Positions 9,028-62,200 of a DNA stretch of 64,000 bases are shown piece by piece. The stretch comes from Burkholderiales bacterium. Lineage in GTDB: Bacteria > Pseudomonadota > Gammaproteobacteria > Burkholderiales > SG8-41. The notes beneath the pieces are model-generated. The model did no database searches, had not been told where the DNA came from, and saw nothing but the letters and a program-made list of their open reading frames with translations. The stretch spans positions 1 through 64,000 of the forward strand of contig JAIETP010000009.1 in NCBI GenBank assembly GCA_019744975.1, in the 5' to 3' direction. Each line of letters opens with the position of its first letter. Position 1 is the first letter of the stretch. The position numbers and the translations under genes were made by a program.

Positions 9028-9045
9028 TAAGTATTTGATTTTATT
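9028..9045 (-). repeat. AT-rich 18-mer repeat, copy d
   Basis: Minus-strand core AATAAAATCAAATACTTA, about 70 bases after the anti-sigma stop codon. It is preceded by TATC, as in the copies at 17787 and 60087. One of five closely matching copies in the window. Confidence 0.75.
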
Positions 9046-9177
9046 GATATTTTTATGGTTTTCTGGCACTGCCAATTACCCCGATCACTAGCGCAGGAAA
9101 AACTTCAGAAAATCGATGAACGGGGTGTTGCCGGAAATCAATGCGCACGGGGAATGCGCAAGAGGAGATGCTGAAAT

Positions 9178-9206
9178 GCGAAGGCCGGGGGTTACCCGGC
9201 CTTCGC
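9178..9206 (-). terminator. 12-bp stem-loop after the lysine-rich microprotein gene
   Basis: GCGAAGGCCGGG (9178-9189) pairs perfectly with CCCGGCCTTCGC (9195-9206). On the minus strand it starts 9 bases after the stop codon of the microprotein and is followed by ATTT, a weak T-run. A factor-independent terminator is the best reading. Confidence 0.65.
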
Positions 9207-9214
9207 AACTGCTA

Positions 9215-9277
9215 CTACTTCTTCTTGGCTGCTTTCTTCTTACCAGCTTTTTTCTTTGCTTTTTTCTTCGCTGCCAT
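9215..9277 (-). CDS. Lysine-rich 20-residue microprotein
   Basis: A 20-codon gene encoding MAAKKKAKKKAGKKKAAKKK, made only of Met, Ala, Lys and one Gly. Evidence that it is real: a strong AAGGAG Shine-Dalgarno 7 bases before the ATG, a stop followed by a 12-bp terminator-like hairpin, and a near match to the first residues of the SWIB-domain protein at 53966 (MAAKKKATKKPAAKKK). It resembles the basic C-terminal tails of bacterial histone H1-like and HU-like proteins and probably binds nucleic acid. It is not a remnant of a longer gene in the same frame that I can see. Function is inferred only from composition. Confidence 0.6.
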   Translation of the reverse strand: MAAKKKAKKKAGKKKAAKKK

Positions 9278-9577
9278 AATCGTCTCCTTAAAAGTTAACT
9301 CAGGCATCGTTTGAATGCGGCTTTTGTTCCGCACTACCAGCACACGATTTTCAAGAACATTTCACGGCGTTTTATTAACCGCCATTCCGCGCTCCAACCA
9401 AAAAAATTGGCGAGAACCGTGTTCGGTGCGCCAATTCTATGCTAAGCGGAAAAATAAATGCAACACCTTTGTAAAGATTATTTGATCAAGCGATTCCGGT
9501 TGTGGATTTGCGGCAACAGCCTATTGCAACGCAAAAGTACGTACTCAACACCGTTTTGATGCCCCGATATGACGTCA
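9278..9577. other. Upstream region of the microprotein gene and 3' side of lysA
   Basis: No gene seen in these 300 bases. Minus-strand transcription of the microprotein must start here, but no clear -35/-10 pair could be picked out. Confidence 0.4.
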
Positions 9578-10837
9578 TTAATCCGGCAAACGATGCTCGT
9601 TTGCCATCAGCATGGCGATGGTTTCGCGGTCGCGGATGCGGTGTACGCGATCACCATCCACCATGATTTCGGCGGCGCGCGGCCGGGTGTTGTAGTTGGA
9701 GGACATGCTCATGCCATATGCGCCGGCCGACGCGATGGCGATCAAATCCCCCGGATTTACAGCCAGTTGACGGTCGCGCGCGAGGAAATCACCGCTTTCA
9801 CAGACCGGGCCGACGATGTCGTATGACTTGCCGCCCGCTGCTGTTTCGCGCAGCGGCAGAACCTCATGCCAGGCCTCGTACAGCGCCGGGCGCATCAGAT
9901 CGTTCATCGCGGCATCGACGATCGCGAAATTCTTGCTTTGTCCCGGCTCCTGCCCGGGTTTCAGGTAAAGCACGGTACTCAGCAGCACCCCGGCGTTGCC
10001 GGTCAACAGCCGGCCCGGTTCAAATAATAGTTTCTGAGGGCGTTGGCCGAGCGCCTTGAGCAGCGCCTGCGCGTATTCGGCGACCGGTGGCGGTGTCTCG
10101 TCCTGGTAACGAATGCCCAGTCCGCCGCCGAGATCAATGTGGTGGATGGCGATGCCGTCACGTGCCAGGACATCGACCAACGCCAGTACCCGCTCCAGTG
10201 CGGCGAGGAACGGCGCCGTTTCCGTCAGCTGCGAACCGATATGGCAGTCGATGCCTTCGATGCGCAGATGCGGCAGTTCGCTGGCGCGGCGGTACACCGC
10301 TGGCGCATCGGTATAGGCCACGCCGAACTTGTTTTCCTTCAGGCCGGTGGCGATGTAAGGGTGGGTTTTGGCGTCGACATCGGGGTTCACACGCAGGCTG
10401 ACCGGGGCGGTCATGCCCATTTCGCCGGCGACCCGGCTCAGCAGTTCCAGTTCCGGCGCGGATTCGACGTTGAAGCACAAAATGCCGGCCTGCAGGGCCT
10501 GGCGCATTTCGGCGGCGGTCTTGCCGACCCCCGAAAACACCACTTTGCGCGGATCACCACCGGCGGCGATGACCCGCGCCAGCTCGCCGCCGGACACGAT
10601 GTCGAAACCGCTGCCGAGGCGCGCAAAAACATTCAGAACGCCGAGATTGGGATTGGCTTTTACCGCATAACACAGCAGATGATCGCGCCCGGCGAAGGCG
10701 GCGTCGAAGTCGCGCCAGGCCCGGGTCAGTTCGGCGCGCGAGTACACATAACAGGGGGTGCCGAATTCCGCGGCGATGCGCGACAGGGGCACCATTTCGG
10801 CATGGAGTTCGCCATTGCGGTAGCTGAACGGGTTCAT
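9578..10837 (-). CDS. lysA: Diaminopimelate decarboxylase
   Basis: PLP-dependent decarboxylase of 419 residues that converts meso-diaminopimelate to L-lysine, the last step of lysine synthesis, in the cytosol. The N-terminal alanine-racemase-like barrel carries the PLP lysine in CYAVKANPN (Lys60) and the HIGSQL motif. The C-terminal beta domain has the CESGDFLA motif whose Cys and Glu reach the active site across the dimer, and the late Tyr in GAYGMSMSSNYN. Length is normal for the family. The start codon overlaps the stop of lptM (ATGA), so the two are translationally coupled. Confidence 0.97.
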   Translation of the reverse strand: MNPFSYRNGELHAEMVPLSRIAAEFGTPCYVYSRAELTRAWRDFDAAFAGRDHLLCYAVKANPNLGVLNVFARLGSGFDIVSGGELARVIAAGGDPRKVVFSGVGKTAAEMRQALQAGILCFNVESAPELELLSRVAGEMGMTAPVSLRVNPDVDAKTHPYIATGLKENKFGVAYTDAPAVYRRASELPHLRIEGIDCHIGSQLTETAPFLAALERVLALVDVLARDGIAIHHIDLGGGLGIRYQDETPPPVAEYAQALLKALGQRPQKLLFEPGRLLTGNAGVLLSTVLYLKPGQEPGQSKNFAIVDAAMNDLMRPALYEAWHEVLPLRETAAGGKSYDIVGPVCESGDFLARDRQLAVNPGDLIAIASAGAYGMSMSSNYNTRPRAAEIMVDGDRVHRIRDRETIAMLMANEHRLPD

Positions 10838-10998
10838 GGCGAAGGTGTAGTTGCTGATGGCTCCGCTGCAGGCTTGGCTGCCGGGGGTTTGGGAGCAGGC
10901 TTTGCGGCGACGGGTTTGTCTTTGGCAAAATACAGCGGGCCTTTGTAGCCGCAGCCGGCGACAGACAGCGTCAGGATCATCAAAATGAGTGTCGTACG
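10834..10998 (-). CDS. lptM: Small lipoprotein LptM (YifL family)
   Basis: Short outer-membrane lipoprotein. The family signature is present: lipobox LSVAGC directly followed by GYKGPLYFAKDK, the segment by which LptM mimics LPS and helps mature the LptD-LptE translocon. A Pro/Ala/Lys-rich tail follows. I prefer the GTG at 10998 (54 residues, Cys at 17) because this gives a compact lipoprotein signal; an ATG at 11046 would add 16 residues. It overlaps lysA by 4 bases, as lptM does in many proteobacteria. The cyaY gene that often sits divergently beside it is absent here. Confidence 0.85.
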   Translation of the reverse strand, partial: RTTLILMILTLSVAGCGYKGPLYFAKDKPVAAKPAPKPPAAKPAAEPSATTPSP

Positions 10999-11085
10999 CA
11001 CAGGAATACTCGCGCGGAAAGTGGCAGGAAGTTTAGCACAGCACATTAATGCGCCTGCCTTGTACGCATCGGGTTGCGCAGTGGT

Positions 11086-11835
11086 TTAGAGCAGCAGATA
11101 ACGATGTGCTTCGCGGCGTAATGCAGCCCGGCGTTCGGCGTAATCAGGAACCAGTGCAGCGACGGCATGCCAGAACGCCGGTGAATGATTCATCTGGCGC
11201 AGGTGGGCGACTTCATGCGCGGCGACATAGCTTATCCACGCCATCGGTGCCTGCACCAGCCGCCAGTTCATGCTGATGCGGCCATTGGCATGGCAGCTGC
11301 CCCAGCGCGTGCGCGCATTCGACAGCCGCACCGCCGGCGCCGGCAGATCCAGTTGCGCGCTGTAATCGCGGCAGTGCCCGGTAAAACACGGCAACGCCTG
11401 CTGTTTCAGCCAGTGGCGCACTCCGGATTCGATGGCTGTCGGCGCCAGTTGCGGGTCAAACAGCAGCCGGTCCTGTTGCAGTTGCGGCAGCTTGATGCCG
11501 GCGTATGCCTCCAGCGTCACCGGTGCGCCGTACAACATGATTTGTGCGCCGGAGACCCATGAAAGCGGCGGCGGGCGCTTTTGCTGCCAGTCCCGGACCT
11601 TGCGGATCACCCAGACGGCATGCAGCCGTAGCAGATCGTCTATGGCCCGTTGCGGCGCTTTAAGCGGTGCTGCGACGCGCAGGCCGCGTTCATCAATCAA
11701 CAGCGAGATCGTGTGCCGGCGCCGGGTGCGCTGCAGCGTGTAGCTGATGTGTTGCCCGCCCAAGTCGATGACCGGACCGGATTCCGGCGCTGCAAGCAGC
11801 GGCATTTCGGATTGCCGGGCCGGATTTTGGGTCAT
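11086..11835 (-). CDS. YgjP-like zinc metallopeptidase (DUF45)
   Basis: Protein of 249 residues in the YgjP/WLM family. Zinc site HEVAH (207-211) with the third ligand His217 in MNHSPAFW, preceded by the family motif NARTRWGSC (174-181) and SMNWRLVQAP. It is predicted to be a cytosolic metal-dependent hydrolase; substrates are unknown in the family. The ATG at 11835 was chosen because it lies 10 bases from the plsC stop and the longer reading frame only adds residues antisense to plsC. It is the last gene of the minus-strand cluster that begins at miaB. Confidence 0.85.
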   Translation of the reverse strand: MTQNPARQSEMPLLAAPESGPVIDLGGQHISYTLQRTRRRHTISLLIDERGLRVAAPLKAPQRAIDDLLRLHAVWVIRKVRDWQQKRPPPLSWVSGAQIMLYGAPVTLEAYAGIKLPQLQQDRLLFDPQLAPTAIESGVRHWLKQQALPCFTGHCRDYSAQLDLPAPAVRLSNARTRWGSCHANGRISMNWRLVQAPMAWISYVAAHEVAHLRQMNHSPAFWHAVAALVPDYAERRAALRREAHRYLLL

Positions 11836-11845
11836 TGCTGCTGAT

Positions 11846-12580
11846 TCAGCGGGTGTCGAGCAGCGGCATCTCGCCCTCGATCCAGTCTTCCACGCGTTTG
11901 GCCAGCGTTTCCGCGTCAGTGCCATCAGGCCGCATGGCTGGGCCGATGCTGACGGTGATCAACCCCGGGCGCTTGAGGAAGGCGTTGCGGCCCCAGCAGG
12001 TGCCGGCGTTATGTGCGACCGGAATTACCGTGGTGCCGGTTTGTACCGCAAGTCGTGCGCCGCCGGGACGGTATTTGCCGCGGCTCCCCGGCGGGATGCG
12101 GGTGCCTTCGGGGAAAATGACGATACAGAATCCCGCCGCGAGTCGTTGAACCCCCTGTTCGACCAGTTGCTGCAGCGCTTCGCGGCGCAAACTGCGGTCG
12201 ATGGCGATGGGCGACAGCATGGCCAGTCCCCAGCCGAAAAACGGCACGCGCAGCAGTTCGCGCTTCAACACCCAGACCTGTGGCGGAAAAATCTGCTGGA
12301 AGGCCAGTGTTTCCCAGGCCGACTGGTGTTTGGACAGGATGATGCAGGGCTCGGCGGGGATGTTTTCGCGGCCGATCACACGGTAGCGGATGCCACAGAT
12401 GACGCGGGCAGCCCACATCACCCAATGTGTCCATAGGGAAATGATGCGATAACGCGTCAGCGCCGGCAGCGGGAAGGTCAGCAGCGCAATGACCGCAAAA
12501 ACGGGGGTGATCAGGGCCAGGAATAAAGCGAACAGCGTGGAACGCAGAGTGATTATTGAAAGTTGCATAAATGATGACAA
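11846..12580 (-). CDS. plsC: 1-acyl-sn-glycerol-3-phosphate acyltransferase
   Basis: Membrane acyltransferase of 244 residues that makes phosphatidic acid from lysophosphatidic acid. An N-terminal hydrophobic stretch (about 8-40) anchors it. The acyltransferase motifs are visible: block I as KHQSAWE (about 84-90, with Glu where most members have Asp), block III FPEGTR (about 155-160), and block IV VIPVAHNAG. It is placed between gmhB and the YgjP-like gene, as in many betaproteobacteria, in an envelope-lipid context. A second possible start (Met5) cannot be excluded. Confidence 0.92.
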   Translation of the reverse strand: MSSFMQLSIITLRSTLFALFLALITPVFAVIALLTFPLPALTRYRIISLWTHWVMWAARVICGIRYRVIGRENIPAEPCIILSKHQSAWETLAFQQIFPPQVWVLKRELLRVPFFGWGLAMLSPIAIDRSLRREALQQLVEQGVQRLAAGFCIVIFPEGTRIPPGSRGKYRPGGARLAVQTGTTVIPVAHNAGTCWGRNAFLKRPGLITVSIGPAMRPDGTDAETLAKRVEDWIEGEMPLLDTR

Positions 12581-12644
12581 AAACAGGCCTCTGCTCGGTT
12601 GGCAGATTCGGCTGTCATGTTTTTGGAAAAATTCAATAACCCCA

Positions 12645-13178
12645 TCATTGCAGCAGGCTGCGCACGGCTGCCGCGAGATCGTCGTAAACGACGGTGCCTT
12701 CCGGCAGGCCGCCGTCCTTGCGGGTTTTTTTGCCCTTGCCGGTCAGCACCAGAATTGGCTGCGCGCCGACCGCGACAGCGGCCTGCAGGTCGCGCAGCGA
12801 ATCGCCGATGAATGGCACGCCTTCCAGGCTGACACCGAAACGGTGGGCGATTTCTTCCAGCAGCCCGGGTTTCGGCTTGCGGCAGTTGCAGCCGGCGTCC
12901 TGCGAGTGCGGGCAGTAGAAAATCCCGTCAATGCGGCCACCGGCGAGGCCCAGCGCGCGGTGCATCTTGTCGTGGATCGCGTTCAGCGTCGCCATTTCGA
13001 ACAGGCCGCGGCCGACCCCCGACTGGTTGGTGGCAACCAGCACCCGGTACCCGGCCTGGCTCAGCAGCGCGATCGCCTCCAGGCTGCCCGGGATCGGTTT
13101 CCACTCCTCCGGGCTTTTGATGTACGCCGGGCTGTCGTGGTTGATGACACCGTCGCGGTCGAGGATGATCAGTTTCAT
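12645..13178 (-). CDS. gmhB: D-glycero-beta-D-manno-heptose-1,7-bisphosphate 7-phosphatase
   Basis: HAD-family phosphatase of 177 residues that removes the C7 phosphate in ADP-heptose synthesis for the LPS inner core. The nucleophile motif is LDRDGVIN (Asp7, Asp9), motif II is ATNQSG, and motif IV is GDSLRDL. The four zinc ligands that mark GmhB are present in CPHSQDAGCNCRKPKP. Cytosolic. It lies 43 bases downstream of glyS on the same strand, and plsC follows 64 bases later. Confidence 0.95.
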   Translation of the reverse strand: MKLIILDRDGVINHDSPAYIKSPEEWKPIPGSLEAIALLSQAGYRVLVATNQSGVGRGLFEMATLNAIHDKMHRALGLAGGRIDGIFYCPHSQDAGCNCRKPKPGLLEEIAHRFGVSLEGVPFIGDSLRDLQAAVAVGAQPILVLTGKGKKTRKDGGLPEGTVVYDDLAAAVRSLLQ

Positions 13179-13221
13179 CGGTTGGCGAGGAGTGAGGGGC
13201 GGGGATTGAGGAGTGAAGGCG

Positions 13222-15290
13222 TCATGCGGCGAGTTTGGAGATGTCGGCGAAGCGGTTAAAAGCGTTTTCGAGCTTCATCAACAGCAGCAGGCGGTTACTG
13301 CGAAGAGCCGGATCCTCGACGTTGACCATGACTTTGTCGAAAAACGCATCCACGGCCGGCTTTAACACGGCCAGCGCCTGCAGGGTTTCCGTAAATTGTC
13401 CGGCCTCGTAGGCGGCATCCGCTTTTGTGTCGGCGGACATGAAGGCCTTGTAAAGCTCGGACTCTTCCCTGGCCTGAAAATGCTTTTCGGAGAACACGTC
13501 GCCGGCAGAGGGGGCTGATTTCCCGATGATGTTCTTGATGCGCTTGTTGGCTGCCGCCAGGCTCGCCGCCTCGGGCAGCGCCGCAAAGGCCCGCACGGCT
13601 GAGAGTTGCAGCGGGATTTTATGAATCAGGGCCGGGCTCATGCTCAGCACCGCATCGATTTCCTGTGTGTTGTAACCGGCATCGGTGAAATAACCGCGCA
13701 TGCGCTCGAAGATGAAGATTTCGAGGTCAGTATGCGCATCCGCGATCTTGGGATGGAATGCGGTAAACGCTGCGCTGACCAGTTCATCCAGACGCAACGG
13801 CAGGTCGCGCTCGATCAGGATGCGAATCACGCCCAGCGCATGGCGGCGCAGCGCGAAGGGATCGCGGTCGCCGGTAGGTAATTGACCGATGCCGAACAGA
13901 CCGGCAAGGGTTTCCAGTTTGTCTGCCAAGGCGACGGCACAGGACACTTTGTTTTCGGGCAGCCGTTCGCCTGCAAACCGGGGTTGGTAATGCTCTGCGA
14001 TCGCATCGGCGACTGCGGCAGGTTCGCCGTCATGCCGCGCGTAATAACGACCCATGATGCCTTGCAGTTCCGGAAATTCGCCGACCATGCCGGTTGTCAG
14101 GTCGGCTTTGGCCAGCCAGGCGGCGCGTTCCGCCTGCGCCGCGTCAGCATTCAGCAACCGCGCGATTTTCCCGGCCAGCAACTGCACGCGCTGGACACGC
14201 TGCAACTGGGTGCCGAGTTTGTTGTGATAAACGACCTTTTCCAGCCGCGGGACCCGGGTTTCCAGCCGTTCCTTGCGGTCCTGGTTGTAGAAAAAGCGCG
14301 CATCTTCCAGTCGCGGCCGGATCACGCGCTGGTTGCCGCTGATGATGTGCGCCGGATCGGCGAGCTGCATATTGCTGACGATCAGGAAGCGGTTTGTCAG
14401 TTTCCCGGTGCCGTCGAACAGCGGGAAGTATTTCTGGTTCTGGCGCATGGTCAAAATCAGGCATTCGGCGGGGACTTCGAGGAATCCCGCATCAAAGGCG
14501 CCGACATAGACTGAGGGATGTTCGACGAGTGCTGTGACCTCGTCGAGAAGATCCTGATACTCGCCCAGCGTGGCCTGCTGCTTTTTCGCTTCCGCCTGCA
14601 GCAGTCCGTCGATCATGCTGCGGCGTTGGGCAAAATCGGCGATGACCATGCCGTCTTTGGCCAGTACGGTTTCGTAGGCTTCGGCATTGGGGATGACCAG
14701 TTCCGACTGCCCCATGAAGCGATGGCCACGGGTTTTGTTGTCCGAGGGGATGCCGAGCACGGTGCCGGGCACGACGGATGCGCCGTGCAACATGATCAGG
14801 CCGTGCACCGGGCGTACAAATTCTGCGTCGCCGTCGCCCCAGCGCATCATTTTGGCGACGGGCAGTTTTTTCAGGGCGGCTTCGACTTTTGCGGCCAGCG
14901 TGTTTTTCAGCGCACTGCCGTTGGCGGTTTTGCGGCAGGCGAACACCATGCCCTTGGCTGATTCGATCTGCACCAGGTCTTCGACCGCAATACCGTTTTT
15001 CTTGGCGAAGCCGGCCAGTGCCGGTGTGGCTTTGCCGTCCTTGTCGAGCCCGACCTTGACCGACGGCCCCTGGATTTCCAGCGCCTTGTCCGGGGACTGC
15101 GCGAGCACTTGCGTGATCTGCACCGCAAGACGCCGCGGTGTGGCATAGGCGCGCGATGCGCTGCCTGTGGCGAGAAAACCTTCCTGCTGCAGATCTTCAG
15201 TCAGTGCTTTGCGGAACGCTTCAGCCAGTCGTGCCAGCGATTTCGGCGGCAGTTCCTCGGTCAGCAGTTCGACCAACAGTGTCGCGGCCG

Positions 15291-15294
<4 letters not shown>
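13222..15294 (-). CDS. glyS: Glycine--tRNA ligase beta subunit
   Basis: Beta subunit (690 residues) of the heterotetrameric bacterial glycyl-tRNA synthetase. It begins with the typical [15 protein letters not shown] and carries the HD-like and DALR anticodon-binding regions towards the C terminus ([15 protein letters not shown], then [22 protein letters not shown]). It binds the tRNA while the alpha subunit catalyses. It overlaps glyQ by 4 bases (ATGA type), which suits equal production of the two subunits. Confidence 0.97.
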
Positions 15295-16166
<872 letters not shown>

Positions 16167-16254
16167 GAAAAATGAGCATGGCAGGGCGTTGATAAGCCGC
16201 GAATTTTACAGGGTTTGCCGCGCTGCGCCAAAGGCGGGGCGCTGTCCGGCGCGC

Positions 16255-17763: not shown

Positions 17764-17786
17764 CGTTGGCGCTAATCTAAAATATC

Positions 17787-17804
17787 AATAAAAACAAATA
17801 TTTA
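17787..17804 (+). repeat. AT-rich 18-mer repeat, copy a
   Basis: Core AATAAAAACAAATATTTA, preceded by ATATC, in the 54-base gap between corC and lnt (13 bases beyond the corC stop). See the copies at 9028, 31545, 49017 and 60087. Confidence 0.75.
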
Positions 17805-17817
17805 CGTTATGCCGCCG

Positions 17818-18654: not shown

Positions 18655-18668
18655 GGGCGGTGTTGTAG

Positions 18669-21752: not shown

Positions 21753-22064
21753 CTTTTTAGCGCTGTTGAGCCGAGCCTGTTCCTCTGGCGTCAGGATCAC
21801 GATGCGCTGCACCTCGCCATTGCGGTCGAGTTGGTACAGTACTTCTGAATTCGGGGGCAGCTGGCCCTGGGTGATGGTGAGGTTGTTGCTGTTGACGATG
21901 ATGCCGCCGGGCGCCAGGCGCAGAATGTCTTTGCCGATCTGTACCGTGGGGAACATTTGGCGTTCGCCGGTGGTGCCGCGTTTGGCTTCAGCCGGCAGCG
22001 CACGCTGCGCCCAGGCGGGTGCAGCGAAAGCCAAAAAAGCCAATAAAAGCATTAACTTACGCAT
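21750..22064 (-). CDS. Exported hypothetical protein
   Basis: A 104-residue protein I do not recognise. It has a clear signal peptide (MRKLMLLLAFLAF, cleavage after APAWAQ at about residue 19) and a small soluble domain (about 40-95) with alternating hydrophobic residues (LRLAPGGIIVNSNNLTI, VLYQLDRNGEVQRIVIL), probably beta-rich. I chose the ATG at 22064 for the signal peptide; a longer reading frame starts at 22121. The stop codon (21750-21752) is formed by the end of the palindromic element, so the C terminus may have been changed by the insertion. Confidence 0.65.
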   Translation of the reverse strand: MRKLMLLLAFLAFAAPAWAQRALPAEAKRGTTGERQMFPTVQIGKDILRLAPGGIIVNSNNLTITQGQLPPNSEVLYQLDRNGEVQRIVILTPEEQARLNSAKK

Positions 22065-22127: not shown

Positions 22128-22203
22128 TGGTGGCGAGTCAGGGATTTGAACCCCGGACCAATGGATTATGATTCCACTGCTCTAACCACTGAGCTAACTC
22201 GCC
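22128..22203 (-). tRNA. tRNA with CAU anticodon, probably tRNA-Ile2 (lysidine type)
   Basis: A 76-base tRNA with encoded CCA. All arms fold: acceptor GGCGAGT/ACTCGCC, D arm GCTC/GAGC, anticodon arm GTGGA-ATCATAA-TCCAT (G-T first pair), T arm CGGGG/CCCTG region with TTCAAAT loop. The anticodon is CAT. The 8-base D loop (AGTGGTTA), the following AG and the TTGGTC variable region match tRNA-Ile2 rather than elongator tRNA-Met, which usually has AGTTGGTTA. If so, TilS converts C34 to lysidine and it reads AUA. Automatic tools would label it Met. Confidence 0.93.
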
Positions 22204-31521: not shown

Positions 31522-31544
31522 GCGCGGCAGCCCACTAAAAACTC

Positions 31545-31562
31545 AATAAAAACAAATAGTTA
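31545..31562 (+). repeat. AT-rich 18-mer repeat, copy b
   Basis: Core AATAAAAACAAATAGTTA, 23 bases after the cyclase stop codon and 46 bases from the convergent mltA stop. The core differs from copy e (inside uvrA) at one position only. Confidence 0.75.
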
Positions 31563-31607
31563 CAATGCATTTTCTATGAGCGGGCGCTTACTTTAAGTTT
31601 ACCGACG

Positions 31608-34868: not shown

Positions 34869-35555
34869 ATGAAAAAAACGTTTCCGATTGCCGTGCAGGC
34901 CGTGATGATTGATCTCGACGGCACCCTGCTCGATACCATTCCTGATCTTGCTGCTGCGGCCAACCTGATGCTGGAGGCGCTGGGCCACGCGCCGCTGCCG
35001 CTGGATGCCGTGCGCACTTTCGTCGGCAAGGGCATACCGCGGCTGGTCGAGCGTGCGCTGGCCCGCGACATCGACGGCCATGCCGATGCTGTGGCGATGG
35101 CAGAGGCGCTGCCGGTGTTCGAGCGTTTTTACACCGAGGTCAACGGGCGTTACACCACGGTGTATCCCGGAGTCATGGAGGGCCTGGAGCAATTCCGTGC
35201 CGGCGGTTTCCCGCTGGCCTGCGTCACCAACAAATCCGGCGCATTCACGCTGCCGCTGCTGGAGCGCATGGGTATGGCCCATTTTTTTGCGCAGACCATT
35301 TCCGGCGACACGCTGGCGCGCAAAAAACCCGATCCCATGCAGTTGCTGCATGCCTGCGCGCAGTTTGGTGTTGCACCGGAGCGCATGCTGATGATCGGCG
35401 ACTCGGTGAATGACGCGCAGGCGGCGCGCGCGGCGGGTTGCCCGGTGTTCTGCGTGCCCTACGGCTATAACGAGGGGCTGGCTGTGCAGAGCCTTGATGT
35501 TGATGCTATAGTAGGCGCGCTGACTGAATGTATCCCTTTGATTAAAAAGATTTAA
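34869..35555 (+). CDS. gph: Phosphoglycolate phosphatase
   Basis: HAD-family phosphatase of 228 residues that removes 2-phosphoglycolate, formed from DNA repair or by Rubisco oxygenation. Nucleophile motif DLDGTLLDT (Asp17, Asp19), motif II VTNKSG, motif III lysine in KKPDP, motif IV GDSVNDAQAA. It lies 66 bases after rpe in the same direction and directly before the leader region of trpE. Confidence 0.95.
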   Translation: MKKTFPIAVQAVMIDLDGTLLDTIPDLAAAANLMLEALGHAPLPLDAVRTFVGKGIPRLVERALARDIDGHADAVAMAEALPVFERFYTEVNGRYTTVYPGVMEGLEQFRAGGFPLACVTNKSGAFTLPLLERMGMAHFFAQTISGDTLARKKPDPMQLLHACAQFGVAPERMLMIGDSVNDAQAARAAGCPVFCVPYGYNEGLAVQSLDVDAIVGALTECIPLIKKI

Positions 35556-35581
35556 TCGTGTCTTTAAACGTATTGCTCCCG

Positions 35582-41425: not shown

Positions 41426-41430
41426 TGTCG

Positions 41431-41448
41431 TAAATTATTGTTTTTAAA
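41431..41448 (-). repeat. Degenerate copy of the AT-rich 18-mer (copy f)
   Basis: Minus strand TTTAAAAACAATAATTTA; from AAAAAC onward it matches copy a at 15 of 17 positions. It lies just upstream of the ElyC-like gene. Weak on its own and listed only because of the five better copies. Confidence 0.35.
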
Positions 41449-41503
41449 AAGTTTTTTGACGAATCGCGGCTGTGGTAACCGATATCGGGAAAGTGTCTGA
41501 AGT

Positions 41504-49016: not shown

Positions 49017-49034
49017 AATAAAATCAAATACTTA
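49017..49034 (+). repeat. AT-rich 18-mer repeat, copy c
   Basis: Core AATAAAATCAAATACTTA, identical over all 18 bases to copy d at 9028. It lies between convergent genes, 8 bases after the tyrS stop, and its last three bases form the stop codon of the oxidoreductase on the other strand. Confidence 0.8.
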
Positions 49035-51890: not shown

Positions 51891-51960
51891 GCTGTCCGGC
51901 TGTCAGGAACCGGCGCTGCCGGCGACAGATTCGCGCTGGACCCAACATAAGGAGGCATCA

Positions 51961-52521: not shown

Positions 52522-52549
52522 CCGGCGCCCGCGGCAAGTGTGCGGTTTC

Positions 52550-54280: not shown

Positions 54281-54301
54281 TCTGCCTCACGGCAGGACTG
54301 T

Positions 54302-54329
54302 AACGGGGCGCTCAGGCGCCCCGTTTCTT
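54302..54329 (+). terminator. Terminator of the SWIB gene
   Basis: Stem ACGGGGCGC (54303-54311) with GCGCCCCGT (54316-54324), loop TCAG, then TTCTTTT. A second small inverted repeat, TTGTACG/CGTACAA, follows at 54330-54348. Confidence 0.92.
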
Positions 54330-54380
54330 TTGTACGGTTTTCGTACAAGTATCCCCACGGTTTTTGCCCCGCTTTTACTT

Positions 54381-55508
54381 CTAGCGCCTGCTGACGTAGG
54401 CGCCCCCCAGCAGCAGTATCACCGCCATCGCCCAGAACACCGGTGTCATGCCCAGTGTCGCGCCGAGGATGCCGAACAGCAGGGGAATGCCCACCTGGGT
54501 CAGGTTGAGCAGGAAGGTGCGCACACCGACCACCTCGCCACCGCGTCCCGGGGGTGCTGCGTTATACAGCAGCGCCATGATCATCGGTTGTGTGCCGCCG
54601 ATGGCCAGGCCGAGTGCGAAGGCCACCGCCATCAGCAGCGGCACCTGCTCGATCAGCGGGAACACCGTCATCGCCGCAGCGGTGGCGAACATGCCGCCGA
54701 TTACCAGCGGCCATTCGCGCACCCGGTGCGCGATCAGCGGCAACAACACACGCACCAGGAAAATCGCGCCGCCGAATGCACCGAGAATCAGACCGATGGT
54801 GGATGCCGAGAGTCCGAGGCCGGTGCCATGGATCGGCGTGACAAAGGTGAACAGGTCCCAGGCCATCGACAGGGTTGCGCTGGCGATGAAGGCGCGGCGC
54901 AGCCCGCGCATGCGGAACAGGTCGCTGACCCGCTTGGCTGGCGCATCGTGGGCCGGCGCCGGATGGGCGGGGAGCGTGATCGGCCGGGTCAGCAGCAGTA
55001 CGATGGCGATCACCACGCTGGCGCCCAGCAGCAGGAAGGTCAGCCGGTGGCCGATCAGGTCGATGGCAAAACCGGAAATCATCGGTCCGAGAAAACCCGA
55101 GGTTGAAAACGCCAGCGCAAGCAGGCTGAAATTGCGCGAGCGCTGCTCCGGCGTGCCGAGCAGGCCGATGGCGTGGTTGACACAGATATGCACCAGCATG
55201 AACCCGCTGCCGGTCACCGCGCTGACGATGAACAGGGTTTCGATGCGCGGAATGGCGACCGCCAGCAGCAGCGCGCCGAGCACTGCGCCGGCACCGATGA
55301 ACAGCGGTGTGCGCACACCGATGCGGTCAATGCTGCGTCCCCAGCCCACCGAAAACACCAGCGGCACCGCCGCCAGCAGCGAAATCAGCACACCCACCGC
55401 CAGCGCTGACGCGTGCAAGTGCAGCGCGAACAGCGACAGCGTGACGCGCGAGCCGGCAAACGCCAGGTGCAGCAGGATGGTCAGCAGCAGTACGAGGCGG
55501 ATGCTCAT
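54381..55508 (-). CDS. Major facilitator superfamily transporter
   Basis: Inner-membrane transporter of 375 residues with about 11-12 hydrophobic helices over its whole length (start MSIRLVLLLTILLHLAFAGS; the loop after helix 2 has VGWGRSIDRIGVRTPLFIG, the MFS motif A region). A cytosolic loop at about 180-200 splits the two halves. The substrate is unknown; an efflux role is a guess. The ATG at 55508 overlaps the stop of the EamA gene (TGATG), so translation is coupled. Confidence 0.9.
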   Translation of the reverse strand: MSIRLVLLLTILLHLAFAGSRVTLSLFALHLHASALAVGVLISLLAAVPLVFSVGWGRSIDRIGVRTPLFIGAGAVLGALLLAVAIPRIETLFIVSAVTGSGFMLVHICVNHAIGLLGTPEQRSRNFSLLALAFSTSGFLGPMISGFAIDLIGHRLTFLLLGASVVIAIVLLLTRPITLPAHPAPAHDAPAKRVSDLFRMRGLRRAFIASATLSMAWDLFTFVTPIHGTGLGLSASTIGLILGAFGGAIFLVRVLLPLIAHRVREWPLVIGGMFATAAAMTVFPLIEQVPLLMAVAFALGLAIGGTQPMIMALLYNAAPPGRGGEVVGVRTFLLNLTQVGIPLLFGILGATLGMTPVFWAMAVILLLGGAYVSRR

Positions 55509-56407
55509 CAAGCGGCCTGCGGCGCACGGCGCTGCCACGACACCAGAGCCACGCCGAGGCAGGTGATGACGATACCGGCCAGCGAAATGGCGGTTGGCAC
55601 CACACCAAACAGCAACAGCTCCAGTGCCACTGCAAAAATCGGGGTCAGGTAAATCAGGCTGGTGACCCGCGTCGCCTGACCGCGCCGCATCAGCGTATGC
55701 AGCGCATTGACGGCGAGTATCGAGGCGCCGATCACCAGGAAAACGATGGTGCCGGCGAGTGTCCATGACCAACGCACGGCGGCGCCCTCGACCAGCCACG
55801 CCAGGGGGGCCAGCACGACGATGTTGCCGGCGAACTGGATCAATGCCGCCGCACGAAGGTCGACCGCCGGGCAGTACACGCGCTGGTACAAGGTGCCGGC
55901 GGTCACGCCGATCAACGACACCGTCACCGCCAGCAGCGCCCCCAGCGTGGCTTCACGGATGTCAATCTTGTGCCAGACGATCAGTGTCACGCCGGCCAGC
56001 CCGATGGCGATGCCCAGCCATTGCCGCAGACCCAGGCGTTCGCCCATCCAGCGCCCGGCAATCACCGCGGTCAGCAGCGGCTGGATCGACAGCAACACGG
56101 CAGTGATGCCTGCCGACATGCCGAGGTACTGGGTGTAATGGCTGCCGCCGAGGTGTACGGTGTGCATCAGCAGTCCGGCGACGATGATGTGGCCATACTC
56201 GCCACGATGTTCCGGCCAGCGTGGTTTGGAAATCAGGACGATCGGAATCAGGCACAGGATACCGAAGGCAAAACGCAGCGCGAGGAAAGTGAAGGGCGCC
56301 GCATGCTGCAGGCCGATTTTGGTGGCGAGGAAGCCTGAGCCCCAAACCGAGACGAAATACCACGCCAGCAGGGTTTCGTAATGACGGGCGGAAAGCGGGG
56401 AAGCCAA
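55508..56407 (-). CDS. EamA/DMT-family transporter
   Basis: Inner-membrane protein of about 299 residues with ten hydrophobic helices in two EamA repeats (about 10-135 and 145-285), the pattern of drug/metabolite exporters such as RhaT/YdcZ relatives. Motifs: VWGSGFLATKIGLQ near the start and SLIYLTPIFAVALELL in the second repeat. The start is uncertain: no ATG fits well, the TTG at 56407 gives a family-length protein, and upstream in-frame ATGs would run into the divergent YHS gene. Substrate unknown. Confidence 0.82.
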   Translation of the reverse strand: MASPLSARHYETLLAWYFVSVWGSGFLATKIGLQHAAPFTFLALRFAFGILCLIPIVLISKPRWPEHRGEYGHIIVAGLLMHTVHLGGSHYTQYLGMSAGITAVLLSIQPLLTAVIAGRWMGERLGLRQWLGIAIGLAGVTLIVWHKIDIREATLGALLAVTVSLIGVTAGTLYQRVYCPAVDLRAAALIQFAGNIVVLAPLAWLVEGAAVRWSWTLAGTIVFLVIGASILAVNALHTLMRRGQATRVTSLIYLTPIFAVALELLLFGVVPTAISLAGIVITCLGVALVSWQRRAPQAA

Positions 56408-56513
56408 GATGGCGGGGCGGCAAAGCCGTAAAGGCGTTGAGTATAACGCGGCACGCGGTTGAAAGCCGCTGCGGACAGGAACGTCGTAAGATGTACTGAA
56501 GGAGGGACATGTC

Positions 56514-57113
56514 ATGACCCGGAAAAGCACATTCATTGCATCACGCCTGTTGTTTCTGCTGGTGCTGCTGGCACTGTTGCCCGGTTGCGCGACGATGAAC
56601 GTGGTATCCGACGGCGCCGATTCGCAACTGATGCTGCGCGGCAATGATCCGGTGGCGTATCACACGCAGGGCAAGGCGGTGCCCGGAGATCCGCAGATCA
56701 AAGTGCAGCATGACGGCCTGACCTATCGTTTTGCCAGCGAGGAGCACCGCAGGATGTTTGCCGCCGCCCCGCAGCGCTATGTGCCGGCGTATGGCGGTTT
56801 TTGCGCCAGCGGCGCGCCCTATGCCTTGAAGTCCAATATCGGCGCCAATACCTTCAAAATCGTCGACGGCCGGCTCTATTTGTTCGGCGGCCCGCGCTCA
56901 CGCCGGCATTGGGAAATGGATCAGCAGCAGAATATTGCGCTGGGCGACCGCTATTGGGAGCAGGAGACCAGGGACCGCCCGTTCCGCCCGCAGAACTGGT
57001 ATCGCTATACCTTTCGCGTGCCGCACTATAAAACGGATGCCGAACTCGAGGCCGAGTGGCAGCGGCGTTACGGCAAGCCGGGTGCCGAACCGATCAAGGC
57101 GCCAGCCGGCTGA
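56514..57113 (+). CDS. YHS-domain lipoprotein
   Basis: Predicted lipoprotein of 199 residues: lipobox LLPGC (Cys25), then a YHS domain (about 38-100: [50 protein letters not shown]). YHS domains are linked to metal binding, often copper, because of their Tyr, His and Cys residues. The remaining 90 residues have no domain I recognise. AAGGAGGG lies just upstream. Its 3' end overlaps the convergent pdxH gene by 20 bases. Confidence 0.85.
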
Positions 57114-57732
57114 TGCTCCAGCGAGCGCCGTCGCGCGAGTACAGCAAGCGGTCGTGCAGTCGGTTGCGCCGGCCCTGCCAGAATTCCACCGCTATTGGTT
57201 TTAACCTGTAGCCGCCCCAGTGTGCTGGGCGGGCGGGTGCTTCGCCCTGATTTTTGGCGACTTCAGCAAAGCGGGTTTCGAGCGCGCTGCGACTGGCGAC
57301 TACCGTGCTTTGCGGCGATGCGATGGCGGCATGACGGCTGCCCAGCGGCCGGCTGGAAAAATAGTCGTCGGATTCTGCGGCGCTGGTTTTTTCAACCGCG
57401 CCTTCGATACGCACTTCGCGCTCAAGCTCAACCCAGTGAAATACCATCACGGCGCGCGGATTGGCCGCCAGTTCGCGGCCCTTGCGGCTCTGGTAGTTGG
57501 TGTAAAACACGAAGCCTTGTTGATCCGCGCCCTTCAGCAGCACGATGCGTGCACCCGGCGTGCCGTCAGCGGCCACTGTGGCCAGAGTCATCGCATTCGG
57601 CGTCGGCAGTTCGGCACGGACGGCTTCATCAAACCAGTGCTGGAATTGCGTCAGCGGATCAGCGGCGGCATCAGCCTCATCAAGGCTGGCACGCCGGTAT
57701 TCGTTGCGCATCGCGGCCAAATTCAAGGACAC
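57094..57732 (-). CDS. pdxH: Pyridoxamine 5'-phosphate oxidase
   Basis: FMN-dependent oxidase of about 212 residues that makes pyridoxal 5'-phosphate, the cofactor used by LysA among others. Conserved: [24 protein letters not shown] (FMN and phosphate contacts), [33 protein letters not shown] and the C-terminal [18 protein letters not shown]. Start uncertain: the GTG at 57732 was chosen for the family-like [15 protein letters not shown] at 57753 or ATG at 57711 are possible. Overlaps the YHS gene end on the opposite strand. Confidence 0.93.
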
Positions 57733-57795
57733 TCCCGGACTGGTTGGTGGCAATGCATTTTATCGCTCAGTTTATCGTTCAGTTTAGCGCGCACT

Positions 57796-58662
57796 TTACC
57801 GCTCAGGCAGGGGAATGAATTCCGTTTCGCCGGGCACGCCGGGGAAACGCTGTTCGCGCCAGCGGCTGCGCGCGTCTTCGATCAGTTCCTTGCTGCTGGC
57901 GACAAAATTCCAGGAAATAAAACGGTCGCCGTCCATCGCCGCACCGCCAAACGCCATGATGCGCGCAGCGGAACTGGTGTTCACGGTCACTGGTACGCCA
58001 GGTTCGAACACGGCGACCGTATGCGGTGCGGTGACGGTGCCGCAGACGCTGACATCACCGTCAACGACATAAATCGCGCGCTCGGCATGTTCCGGCGGCA
58101 GCTCGAACTGCGCCGCACCACTGGTGGTGATGGCGCCATAAAACATCGGCGAAAAAGTTTTCACCGGTGCCTGCAGTCCCCAGCCCGATCCTGCGATCAG
58201 GCGCAGCTCCGCATTCGGCCAATGTTTGACCGGCAGCGTGGCTGCCGGATGGTGGGCAAACGCCGGATCGGTGCGCTCGTCGGCGACCGGCAGCGCAATC
58301 CAGGTCTGGATGCCATGCAGCCCGCGAGCTTTCCCGCGCTCGTCCTCGGGGCTGCGCTCGGAATGCACGATGCCGTGGCCGGCGGTCATCCAGTTGACGT
58401 CGCCGGGAGTGATGCGTTGTTCATAACCCAGACTGTCGCGATGCATGATCGCGCCCTCGAACAGATAGGTCACGGTCGCCAGCCCGATGTGCGGATGCGG
58501 CCGCACGTCGATGGCGCGGCCGGGCGCGAAGTTGACCGGGCCCATGTGGTCGAAAAAAATGAAAGGGCCGACCATCTTGCGCGTCGCCGCCGGCAGCAGG
58601 CGCCGCACTGTAAAGCCGTCGCCCAAGTCCTTGGTGTGGGCCTTCAGGGTCTGAGAAATCAT
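57796..58662 (-). CDS. Pirin family protein
   Basis: Bicupin protein of 288 residues. The metal site of pirins is seen in DVRPHPHIGLATVTYLFEG and the His-Ser-Glu of GIVHSERSPED; the segment VGPFIFFDHMGP is also typical. Bacterial pirins such as YhhW can act as quercetin dioxygenases, others as regulators of central metabolism; which applies here is unclear. Cytosolic. It stands alone between pdxH and a META-domain lipoprotein gene, all on the minus strand. Confidence 0.93.
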   Translation of the reverse strand: MISQTLKAHTKDLGDGFTVRRLLPAATRKMVGPFIFFDHMGPVNFAPGRAIDVRPHPHIGLATVTYLFEGAIMHRDSLGYEQRITPGDVNWMTAGHGIVHSERSPEDERGKARGLHGIQTWIALPVADERTDPAFAHHPAATLPVKHWPNAELRLIAGSGWGLQAPVKTFSPMFYGAITTSGAAQFELPPEHAERAIYVVDGDVSVCGTVTAPHTVAVFEPGVPVTVNTSSAARIMAFGGAAMDGDRFISWNFVASSKELIEDARSRWREQRFPGVPGETEFIPLPER

Positions 58663-58680
58663 AACGGAGTCATAACTGCG

Positions 58681-59139
58681 TCATGGCTGCAGTTTTGCAG
58701 CGGGTTTTTCCGCCGGTTTTTCAACACTGCGGCGGAAACGCGCGCTGTCGTCGCCGGCGGAGAGGATCAGCGCATCGCCTTCAGTACGGAAATAGGGTTT
58801 GCCCTGCAGCAGCTTGAAATAACGGCCTTCAAAACTGCCGACCGGTTCGATGCAGGCACGGCGGGTGACGGCCAGCGGGGTCGCGACCATTCTGCCGTCG
58901 ACCGAACTTACTGCGCCGGTGCCGGTGTTGCAGCCGCTGAAAGCCGAAATGCGCCCGTCGCGGAGCAGCAGGGTCGCGCGCGCCAGGCCGGGCATGCGGC
59001 CGATGTCGACAAAGCTCGACGTAGTCATTTCCCACCGGCCTTCCGGCAGCGGGATGGGTTTGTCGACAACGGCGCAGGACGCGCTGAAGATGGCGACCGC
59101 GGCGCACAGCAGTTTCAGGCGGAAGAAGCTTGATGACAT
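58681..59139 (-). CDS. META-domain (HslJ-like) lipoprotein
   Basis: Predicted lipoprotein of 152 residues: lipobox FSASC (Cys22), then a META domain (about 35-130) recognised by the strand-turn RISAFSGCNTGTGAVSSVDGR that is near-diagnostic for HslJ/META proteins. Members are secreted or lipid-anchored and linked to stress or motility, with no known activity. The ATG at 59139 gives a proper lipoprotein signal; the frame upstream is open only because it runs antisense into uvrA. The last 20 residues are Lys/Pro/Glu rich. Confidence 0.8.
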   Translation of the reverse strand: MSSSFFRLKLLCAAVAIFSASCAVVDKPIPLPEGRWEMTTSSFVDIGRMPGLARATLLLRDGRISAFSGCNTGTGAVSSVDGRMVATPLAVTRRACIEPVGSFEGRYFKLLQGKPYFRTEGDALILSAGDDSARFRRSVEKPAEKPAAKLQP

Positions 59140-59218
59140 GGGGTCGTGAGAGCGTAATGGGGACGTTGATACAGGGGAGACGTGATTATAAACCGCGTTG
59201 TTGTTGCGGGATTCCCAA

Positions 59219-62200
59219 TCAGATGCCGCGTTCGCGCAGGAATTCGCCGAGTATGCGCGCGGTATGCGAGCGCCTGGGGTTTTTGACCACCTGCGCCGGC
59301 GGCCCTTCGGCGACAATGCGTCCGCCGCCGTCGCCGCCCTCGGGTCCCAGATCGATGATCCAGTCGGCTTCGGCCATCACGTCAAGATTGTGTTCGATCA
59401 CCACCACCGAATTGCCGGCATCGACCAGCCGGTGCAGCACATGGATCAGCTTCTCGACATCCGCCATGTGCAGTCCGACGGTCGGCTCGTCGAGCACATA
59501 CAGTGTACGTTTCTGCGCGCCTGAACGACCCGGCCGCCCGCCCGCGTCATCACCGTTGACGCGGACCTTGGCCAGTTCGGTGACCAGCTTGATGCGCTGG
59601 GCTTCACCTCCCGACAACGTCGGACTTTGCTGGCCCAGTGTCAGGTAACCGAGGCCGACATCCTGCAGCAGCCGCAGCGTGTGGTGAATCATCGGGTGCG
59701 CCGCGAAAAAATCCACCGCGTCATCCACACTCATTGCCAGCACATCACCGATGGATTTTTCCTTAAACCGTACCGCCAGCGTTTCCGTATCAAACCGCGC
59801 GCCATTGCAGACATCGCAGGGCACTTTCACATCGGGTAGAAAACTCATTTCGATTTTCTGCACGCCTTGTCCTTCGCAGGCCTCGCAACGGCCGCCCTTG
59901 GTGTTGAAGGAGAAACGGCTCGCCGTGTAACCGCGCATGCGCGCTTCCGGCGCTTCGGTGTAGAGGCGGCGGATGGTGTCCCAGAATCCGACATAGGTCG
60001 CGGGACAGGAGCGTGGTGTTTTGCCGATGGGGGTCTGATCGACTTCCAATACCCGGCCTACTGCGTCCCAGCCCGTGATTGTTTTGCAACTATTTGTTTT
60101 TATTGATAATTTTGATTTGTTGTTGACCAGGCGCACGAGGTTGGCATGCAACACATCGCGTGCCAGTGTTGATTTGCCCGAGCCTGATACGCCCGTGATC
60201 ACCGTCAGACGTCCCAGCGGCACACCTGCGGTCACGCGTTGCAGGTTGTGCAAAGCGGCTTCGCGAATGATCAGCAACGATGTGTGTTTGTCGACTCGCC
60301 GCGGCGGATGTAATGGATGCTGCAGCGGTTTGGCCAGCAGACGGCCGGTGACCGACTGCGGATTGGACTGCAGTTCGGCCGCAGTGCCGGCCGCAACGAC
60401 ATGGCCGCCGCGACGTCCGGCACCGGGGCCGAGGTCGATCACATGGTCGGCGCGGCGGATGGTGTCTTCATCGTGTTCGACCACGATCAGGGTGTTCCCC
60501 TTGGTCTGCAGTTTGGCCAGCGTGTCGAGCAGGATGCGGTTGTCGCGCGGATGCAGGCCGATGGTCGGTTCATCGAGAATGTAGGCGACGCCGCGCAGGT
60601 TCGATCCCAATTGCGCCGCGAGGCGGATACGCTGTGCTTCGCCACCCGACAGCGTGGGCGCGGCGCGGTCCAGCGCCAAATAACCCAGACCGACTTCATC
60701 GAGAAAACTCAGCCGGCTGCGGATTTCACTGACAATGTCGCGCGCAATCGCCGCTTCGCGACCACTGAATGACACATCAGTGAATTCGCGCGCAAGTTTG
60801 GCCACCGGCAAAGCAGCGAGCGCTGCAATCGAACGTTTGCGGTAACGCACCGCCAGTGCCGTCGGATTCAGGCGTTGGCCGTCACAGCTCGGGCAGGGTT
60901 CATCGACCTCCAGCCAGTTCAGCCAGGAATCCAGCACATGTTCCTCGGTGCCGGTTTTTTCACGCTCTTCGTCCCAGTCGATTTTTTCCAGGGTCAGTCC
61001 GGTGCCGAAGCACGACGGGCACCAGCCGTGTTTGGAGTTGTACGAAAACAATCGCGGATCGAGTTCGGGAAAACTCTTGTTGCAGGACGGACAGGCGCGT
61101 TTGATCGAATACACAACCTCGGTCAGTTTGATCCGGCGCGCATCCTTTTTCGCCATCGCCTCGGCCAGCGTATCGATGCCGCCCAGCACCTGCACGATGC
61201 CCTTGCCGTGCTCCAATGCCGTCGCCAGTCCGGCGCGCAGGGCGGCTTCGTTTTCCGGCGTGACGCGAATGTCGGCGACCGGCAGTTCAATGCTGTGTTC
61301 CTTGAAGCGCGCCAGCCGCGGCCAGGGCGAGGTCGGGATGAATTCACCATCGACCCGGAGATGGGTGTAACCCCTGCCCGCGGCCCATTTCGCGAGGTCG
61401 GTGTAATAACCCTTGCGGTTGACCACCAGGGGGGCCAGCAGGCCGACGCGATCATTGCGGTACTGCTTCATGATGCGCGCGGTGATCTGGTCGATGCTCT
61501 GCGGTTCGATCGCGACATCGCAGTCCGGGCAGTACTGGGTGCCGAGTTTGACGTAGAGCAGGCGCAGGAAATGGTAGATCTCGGTCAGTGTGGCCACCGT
61601 GCTGCGCCGGCCGCCGCGGCTGGTGCGCTGCTCGATGGCCACGGTCGGTGGAATGCCGTAAATCGCATCGACGTCGGGACGTGCCGCCGCCTGCACAAAC
61701 TGGCGGGCGTAGGCATTCAATGACTCCAGGTAACGCCGCTGGCCTTCGGCAAACACGATATCGAAAGCCAGTGTCGATTTGCCGCTGCCCGACACCCCCG
61801 TGACCACGGTGAATTTGCCGCGCGGAATGTTGACGCTGATGTTTTGCAGATTGTGTTCGCGGGCGTGGCTGACACTGATGTTGTTGCCGTTGCGCAATGC
61901 CGTCATCGGCAGGGGTTGTGGTGCAACCGGCGCACCTAGCGAAGCGGTGTAGTCGCGCAAGGCTTTGCCGGTATGCGAAACCGGGTGTGCGGCGACAATG
62001 TCCGGCGTGCCCGTGCACACCACTTCGCCGCCGGCGTCTCCACCCTCGGGGCCGAGGTCGATGATCCAGTCGGCGGCGCGGATCACGTCGAGATTGTGTT
62101 CGATGACCATCAGCGAATGACCGGCGGCAATCAGCTTGCGGAACGCACCCAGCAGTTTGCGTACATCATCGAAATGCAGCCCCGTGGTCGGTTCATCGAA

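What the first reader, a model, noticed from the sequence alone, without database searches (positions are those of the whole stretch)
9028..60104. Dispersed AT-rich 18-mer, five strong copies in 64 kb, one inside uvrA
AATAAAA(A/T)CAAATA(C/G/T)TT(A/G) occurs at 9028-9045 (-), 17787-17804 (+), 31545-31562 (+), 49017-49034 (+) and 60087-60104 (-). Copies at 9028 and 49017 are identical over 18 bases; copies at 31545 and 60087 differ by one. Three share the 5' extension TATC. A weaker copy is at 41431. In a roughly 60 percent GC sequence such a run is not expected to recur by chance. Four copies lie just after stop codons, two of them between convergent genes, and one is read through as protein in UvrA. 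It has no palindrome, so it is not a standard terminator or REP. It could be a nucleoid-protein (IHF-like) site, a DNA-uptake or segregation signal, or a short mobile unit. I know of no described repeat with this sequence.
Basis: partly seen in the sequence, partly recalled or inferred. Interest (0 to 1): 0.75.

Follow-up and report, generated by a model that had tools for sequence, protein, structure and literature searches.

The report
Evenly spaced genome-wide IHF-type sites
The short AT-rich sequence is one of several hundred near-perfect landing sites for the DNA-bending protein IHF, set at regular few-kilobase steps around the chromosomes of uncultured bacteria in which no HU protein was found, which suggests a built-in, testable scaffold for folding a bacterial chromosome.

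Summary
All five copies are where stated and belong to a genome-wide set: 139 exact copies in 3.69 Mb, 0 for the backwards control. The true unit is about 30 bp: an A-tract, WWATC, AATAAAA W, then CAR-NNNN-TTR. Across six congeners, 171 of 203 directed comparisons of mappable sites keep a site at the same place and strand, against 0.8-3.2% for random positions. The four N columns change at the background rate while the flanking CAR and TTR are nearly fixed. That is the published IHF consensus WATCARNNNNTTR plus upstream A-tract, with W at its T. Sites are evenly spaced: about 7.6 kb here (CV 0.55, null 0.96), 3.4-3.9 kb in two genomes of a second genus (CV 0.41-0.45). The genome encodes IHF alpha and beta; no HU was found. 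In the family, 0 of 41 network genomes have a detected HU, against 21 of 33 others. Not a mobile element: the uvrA copy is a same-length substitution. Best reading: a selected lattice of high-affinity IHF sites with an architectural role. IHF occupancy is inferred. Main rival: an uptake-sequence family.

The parts
9026..9055 (-). IHF-type site (18-mer 9028-9045)
   Evidence: Exact 18-mer; matrix score 51.9; same-strand site in G005, G020, G016 and a weaker one (24.8) in G019; G013 does not cover it
17777..17806 (+). IHF-type site (18-mer 17787-17804)
   Evidence: Exact 18-mer; score 47.1; kept in G005, G020, G013, G016, weak (19.2) in G019
22032..22061 (+).
   Evidence: Score 30.9; kept in G005, G020, G013, G019, G016; tRNA at 22128-22203
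31535..31564 (+). IHF-type site (18-mer 31545-31562), between convergent genes
   Evidence: Exact 18-mer; score 45.1; kept in G005, G020, G013, G019; none listed in G016
35529..35558 (-). weak candidate site
   Evidence: Score 22.7, below the 26-bit line used for counts; matches of 19.1-25.1 bits in G005, G020, G016, none listed in G013, G019
41429..41458 (-).
   Evidence: Score 37.2; kept in G005, G020, G013, G019, G016 at 25.2-30.1 bits
49007..49036 (+). IHF-type site (18-mer 49017-49034) after tyrS, between convergent genes
   Evidence: Exact 18-mer; score 49.0; same-strand site in G005, G020, G013; in G016 a weak same-strand match (18.1) overlaps a strong one (43.9) on the other strand; none listed in G019 or G001
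60085..60114 (-). IHF-type site inside the uvrA reading frame (18-mer 60087-60104)
   Evidence: Exact 18-mer; scored at 25.3-39.6 bits in G005, G020, G013, G019, G016, G001; same-length in-place version in 11 of 12 aligned orthologues

Best explanation
Each copy is a ~30-bp high-affinity binding site for integration host factor (IHF alpha/beta). IHF reads WATCAR and TTR on one side and the upstream A-tract on the other, and folds the DNA into a sharp bend. The chromosome carries roughly 480 such sites by extrapolation (60 in 464 kb), on either strand, about 7.6 kb apart. They lie mostly between genes; those deep inside genes lie far from the other sites. They are held in place by selection over the congeners examined. 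Because spacing is regular and position is largely independent of promoters, the most likely role is architectural: a lattice of fixed IHF bends or bridges that folds the nucleoid, in a lineage where no HU was detected. Shown: sites, footprint, spacing, in-place conservation, IHF genes present, HU not found. Inferred: that IHF occupies the sites, and that the purpose is nucleoid folding.
For: The matrix fits WATCARNNNNTTR better than all of 20,000 column-shuffled matrices. 56 of 63 own-genome sites match WAWCARNNNNTTR in register, and 53 of 63 have at least 4 A in the 5-bp A-tract. Orthologous sites: mismatch 0.39-0.45 at the four N columns, 0.00-0.25 at columns 4-10, 0.00-0.08 at TTR, mostly 0.3-0.67 outside. 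Position and strand are kept in 171 of 203 directed comparisons of mappable sites. Even spacing: CV 0.55 against 0.96, 0 of 3000 nulls, in this genome; CV 0.41 in G254 and 0.45 in G154 of another genus; 0 of 2000 also against a mainly intergenic null. Twelve deep-coding sites lie further from the other sites than random coding positions do (median 6875 vs 3136 bp, P 0.015). Sites per intergenic kb: co-directional 0.98, divergent 0.90, convergent 0.66. IHF alpha and beta score above NCBIfam cut-offs and match the 1IHF chains. Network genomes with a detected HU: 0 of 41; others: 21 of 33. In uvrA, rare codons recur over the site: of 10 orthologues read, TCA in 7, ATA in 6, ACA in 10, codons that make up 7.1, 4.5 and 7.9% of their amino acids. 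IHF consensus, A-tract and bridging: PMC9820253 and PMC8421141 (passages read).
Against: Only 27 of 63 sites match the strict consensus, because position 3 (T) is A in about half. The bases AATAAAA between A-tract and core are more fixed than the published consensus asks. Relatives without the network also encode IHF. Absence of HU is not sufficient: 12 of 53 genomes without a detected HU (g4, g140, some g2 and g3) have no network. HU absence is soft: of the 41 network genomes two gave no PF00216 match at all and six only one, so even IHF subunits were missed there. No site of 26 bits or more near dnaA in the five g1 genomes looked at. No occupancy or bending data exist.
Confidence: 0.66

Rival explanations
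1. A DNA uptake sequence: the motif is what this family's competence machinery recognises, and it accumulated by molecular drive; its likeness to an IHF site is coincidental or secondary.
For: Uptake sequences share reported even spacing, no strand bias, excess in non-coding DNA and near-matching forms; 35% of those of N. gonorrhoeae lie in reading frames, close to the 30% here (PMC1939737, passages). Fragment length can set the scale on which one site serves its surroundings (PMC7811141, passages).
Against: Mean spacing here is 3.4-13.5 kb by stretch, against about 1 kb in H. influenzae. PMC1939737 holds known uptake sequences to be less evenly spaced than a compaction role would need. The fixed and free columns match IHF's consensus in register. 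Competence genes and the spacing CV of real uptake sequences were not tested.
Confidence: 0.14
2. IHF sites used mainly as ordinary gene-regulatory elements (promoter bends) that happen to be numerous.
For: About 70% of sites are intergenic, and IHF regulates many promoters (established knowledge).
Against: Sites per intergenic kb are 0.90 divergent, 0.98 co-directional and 0.66 convergent; per intergenic region of 30 bp or more 0.18, 0.14 and 0.19. Deep-coding sites exist and lie away from the others. Even spacing is not expected of promoters.
Confidence: 0.12
3. A binding site of another, lineage-specific nucleoid or segregation protein with an IHF-like footprint.
For: The motif is strict (40 bits) and in quantity limited to parts of one family in the genomes sampled, while IHF is also present in relatives without it.
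Against: No such protein was sought or found. The free columns are those of IHF. Strands are balanced, against a polar signal.
Confidence: 0.06
4. A short mobile or replicating repeat.
For: High copy number and near-identity of copies.
Against: Flanks are unrelated in the 35 copies compared. The uvrA copy is a same-length substitution, not an insertion. Sites stay in place across species while non-contact bases drift.
Confidence: 0.02

Closest known systems
IHF binding sites (E. coli consensus WATCARNNNNTTR with upstream A-tract)
   Same: Core, free NNNN, TTR and upstream A-tract; asymmetric site of about 30-35 bp (PMC9820253, PMC8421141 passages)
   Different: Hundreds of near-identical copies, evenly spaced and held in place; W instead of T at position 3; extra fixed bases between A-tract and core
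IHF-binding interspersed repeats of E. coli (RIB/RIP, BIME elements; recalled, not tested)
   Same: Dispersed intergenic IHF sites in many copies
   Different: Those are parts of palindromic REP/BIME elements; here there is no palindrome and no repeated flank
DNA uptake sequences of Pasteurellaceae and Neisseriaceae
   Same: Non-palindromic, both strands, even spacing reported, non-coding bias
   Different: Sparser than the ~1 kb of H. influenzae, AT-rich, IHF-patterned; no link to competence shown
matS, KOPS, parS chromosome-organising motifs (recalled)
   Same: Dispersed short chromosomal motif with a proposed architectural role
   Different: Not palindromic, not polar; evenly spread over the regions examined

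Membership tests
IHF binding site | Core WATCARNNNNTTR | tested here: inconclusive
   27 of 63 sites strict, 56 of 63 with W at position 3; no column-shuffled matrix of 20,000 fits as well
IHF binding site | Four N positions unconstrained | tested here: met
   Mismatch 0.39-0.45 at these columns, as in the flanks, between near-fixed neighbours
IHF binding site | A-tract upstream of the core (most of the strongest sites) | tested here: met
   53 of 63 sites with at least 4 A of 5 at -9 to -5
IHF binding site | Organism encodes IHF alpha and beta | tested here: met
   Both above NCBIfam cut-offs
IHF binding site | Bound and bent by IHF | not testable with these tools
   No binding or ChIP data
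DNA uptake sequence | Even spacing, both strands, non-coding bias | tested here: met
DNA uptake sequence | Recognised by the competence machinery | not tested
   Competence genes not searched; no uptake data
DNA uptake sequence | Density near one per kb (as in H. influenzae) | tested here: not met
   Mean gap 3.4-13.5 kb by stretch
REP/BIME | Palindromic stem-loop unit | tested here: not met
   The 30-bp matrix is asymmetric, without an inverted repeat (direct reading; no folding call was made)
Mobile element (MITE or similar) | Insertion relative to empty orthologous sites | tested here: not met
   uvrA stretch of the same length in 12 of 12 aligned orthologues, with and without the site; 7 of the 19 loci given were not aligned. 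Other sites were not tested base by base for insertion

The most novel reading that the evidence does not exclude
In this Burkholderiales family, loss of HU went with the evolution of a chromosome-wide lattice of optimised IHF sites at a lineage-set pitch (about 7.6 kb in one genus, 3.4-3.9 kb in two genomes of another): a sequence-encoded scaffold in which IHF replaces a sequence-blind architectural protein.
Probability: 0.4. Interest if true: 0.88.

Novelty: new variant of a known kind. Interest (0 to 1): 0.74.

Why it matters
A review of the E. coli nucleoid says that higher-order DNA organisation by IHF in vivo needs further investigation (PMC6907758, passages on its non-specific binding). 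A genome that seems to write out its IHF sites at regular steps makes that testable: the pitch is predicted from sequence, differs between genera, and can be moved or removed. It would also offer a natural case of one DNABII protein taking over from another, and a check on the idea that regularly spaced motifs must be uptake sequences.

Tried and rejected
Chance: rejected. Mobile repeat: rejected. Terminator or 3'-end signal: no consistent stop-codon preference. Polar replication signal: strands balanced, C1 21+/24-. Known RNA: only the tRNA is found in the window. Presence at oriC: no site of 26 bits or more in the dnaA loci of five g1 genomes (best 16.7), nor in g23, g139, g2 (two), g3, g4 and g140; all three g22 genomes have at least one (26.4-41.1 bits) within their dnaA loci (the tested stretch is dnaA plus about 1.5 kb each side). 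Literature for the letters of the motif: 0 papers. Literature for REP-linked IHF sites, evenly spaced IHF sites, HU loss with IHF, or uptake sequences in Burkholderiales: I saw listings only, with nothing that matches by title or abstract start. The first rpoB tree used wrong frames for five rows and was replaced. The G154 matrix drifted onto opposite-strand matches and was not used for the consensus; the spacing of G154 uses the G000 matrix. G347's excess is doubtful: its near relative G348 has 2 sites and G347 is 72% complete. A plasmid search with the tyrS region gave only distant tyrS matches.

Full report
The five copies are real and are part of a much larger set. The 18-mer is found exactly at the five stated places, with 0.06 matches expected by chance. 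The window lies in a 3.69-Mb genome in 44 contigs that holds 139 exact copies, 69 on one strand and 70 on the other, while the pattern read backwards has none. With up to two mismatches there are 320 against 1.

In quantity the set is limited to parts of one family. Exact copies occur in 21 of 21 genomes of the genus, 8 to 139 each, and in 0 of 20 relatives of other genera in the same sample. In a sample of 300 genomes of the order, more than one copy is seen only in the same family; several others have one. With the relaxed core TCAATAAAAWCAANNNNTTR at up to two mismatches, all 74 genomes held for the family were counted. Genus g1 has 170-354, g22 86-1025, g23 68-134 and g139 519. Genera g2, g3, g4, g5 and g140 have 0-17, except G021 with 64 and G347 with 32; backwards controls are 0-26. 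In 369 genomes drawn from the class, the largest other counts are 261 (control 64), 198 (63), 155 (67) and 148 (63), against 354 (5) here. A capped exact scan of public genomes for a 21-mer gave mostly uncultured Betaproteobacteria/Burkholderiales assemblies, with single matches in a few other organisms, such as Psychrobacter and Noviherbaspirillum, and three in one Gallionellales assembly. Equal contig lengths tie three congeners to such assemblies.

The real unit is about 30 bp. A matrix built from own-genome sites has 40 bits. It reads, 5' to 3': five mostly-A positions, W, A or T, T, C, then AATAAAA, W, CAA, four weaker positions, TTR. Scores are bimodal: at 26 bits or more there are 89 matches in the sequence scanned and none in the reversed control (part of that sequence was fetched around known sites).

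Evolution shows which bases matter. In the syntenic stretch of congeners, sites lie at the same place and on the same strand while their free bases differ. Over all directed pairs of six genomes, 171 of 203 mappable sites have a same-strand partner within 150 bp, against 0.8-3.2% for random positions (totals summed by me; unmappable sites were set aside, one site can count in several pairs, and partners were accepted at 16 bits or more, which favours conserved columns). Over up to 92 orthologous pairs the mismatch is 0.00-0.25 at columns 4-10, highest at the A/G column. It is 0.40-0.45 at the four N columns, 0.03-0.08 at TTR, 0.15-0.25 in the A-tract (0.36 at its first base) and 0.29-0.67 further out. 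The acceptance bias does not explain the free N columns, because three of them carry as much matrix weight as some conserved ones.

This is the IHF signature. Published IHF sites read WATCARNNNNTTR, with an A-tract upstream in most of the strongest ones (PMC9820253 and PMC8421141, passages read). The matrix fits that consensus better than any of 20,000 column-shuffled versions. Of 63 own-genome sites, 27 match the strict consensus, 56 match when its T may be A or T, and 53 have the A-tract. The genome encodes IHF alpha and beta, both above curated cut-offs and close to the chains of solved IHF structures.

It is not a mobile unit. Flanks beyond the 30 bp are unrelated between the 35 copies compared. 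In uvrA, 19 orthologue loci were given and 12 aligned; 11 of the 12 carry a version of the site, and the most divergent congener, G017, has unrelated sequence of the same length. Of 18 loci given to a codon listing, 10 were read correctly; over the site they use ACA in 10, TCA in 7 and ATA in 6, codons that make up 7.9, 7.1 and 4.5% of their amino acids in this genome. This points to selection on the DNA.

The sites are evenly spaced. In 484 kb of this genome there are 63 sites at 26 bits or more, mean gap 7.6 kb, CV 0.55 against 0.96 for random placement, with none of 3000 nulls as even. In 464 kb, 2 of 57 gaps are under 2.5 kb against 16 expected, and a mainly intergenic null gives the same answer. 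Among congeners, G005 and G020 are even on their own; the short stretches of G013, G019 and G016 are not significant alone; pooled CV is 0.57. In another genus the pitch is shorter, 3.4 kb in G254 and 3.9 kb in G154, with CV 0.41 and 0.45. About 70% of sites are intergenic (41 of 60 by the slightly different rule). The twelve deep-coding ones lie far from the others (median 6875 bp against 3136 for random coding positions, P 0.015). Sites per intergenic kb are 0.98 co-directional, 0.90 divergent and 0.66 convergent, which does not look like promoter control. All gene positions rest on my own simple caller.

HU was not found where the network is. With Pfam PF00216 the own genome has two proteins only, IHF alpha and beta. 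Third copies in G020 and G358 are IHF-beta-like, and one of four in G330 is IHF-alpha-like; a third copy in G010 and the fourth in G330 were counted but not read. Calling a genome a network genome at 10 or more excess sites per Mb, and taking a match to profile positions 1-90 as HU, 0 of 41 network genomes and 21 of 33 others have HU; at 90% completeness or more, 0 of 32 and 10 of 17. Limits: the match list was cut at its weak end; two network genomes had no PF00216 match and six only one, so misses occur; and the HU label was checked by NCBIfam on two proteins only, where HU models score best although below their cut-offs. The link is one-way: 12 genomes without a detected HU have no network. 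On a midpoint-rooted rpoB tree of 25 genomes g1 groups with g139 and g22 (support 81/72), next to g140, and g23 with g2 (91/90), so related genomes are not independent points. G021, a g2 genome with 64 sites and no HU found, is the most telling single case.

Mechanism. I take the sites to be IHF-bound bends that fold the chromosome at a set pitch, with IHF also able to bridge DNA, as reported in vitro for DNA with several sites (PMC8421141). Occupancy and purpose are inference. The strongest rival is an uptake-sequence family, since such sequences are reported as evenly spaced, unpolar and enriched between genes (PMC1939737). I hold it less likely because spacing is several-fold wider than the ~1 kb of H. 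influenzae and because the free and fixed columns are those of IHF; competence genes were not tested. I found no report of such a network in the held library (searches, listings seen); most subscription papers are not held there.

Noticed in passing
L001, L018, L028: Some copies sit on a start codon so that the site would encode the first residues (M-N-K-I-K-Y-L) of what look by eye like signal peptides.
   Followed up: no
window 59219-63829 (-): UvrA reading frame of 1536 aa with repeated UvrA-type ATPase signatures, longer than the usual UvrA (recalled).
   Followed up: no
L317 (G020), L318 (G358), L323 (G330): Extra IHF-beta-like or IHF-alpha-like paralogues beside the normal IHF pair; G358 has the lowest site count of its genus.
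   Followed up: partly
G000 C2 34949-44386 and 39165-66421: A 9.4-kb reading frame adjoins the longest gap between sites (27 kb); GC content is ordinary apart from one 3-kb window at 70%.
   Followed up: partly
G347 and G348 (genus g3): Identical IHF-alpha frames but 32 and 2 sites: possible foreign contigs in one assembly.
   Followed up: no
   Followed up: no
G379; G540, G396, G646 of family f83 (class sample): G379 has 45 relaxed-core matches against 0 in the control, and family f83 has 106-261 against 32-67: perhaps smaller separate sets of optimised IHF sites.
   Followed up: no
PMC6907758, Table 2 as held: The binding motifs of H-NS and IHF appear to be exchanged in the table.
   Followed up: no
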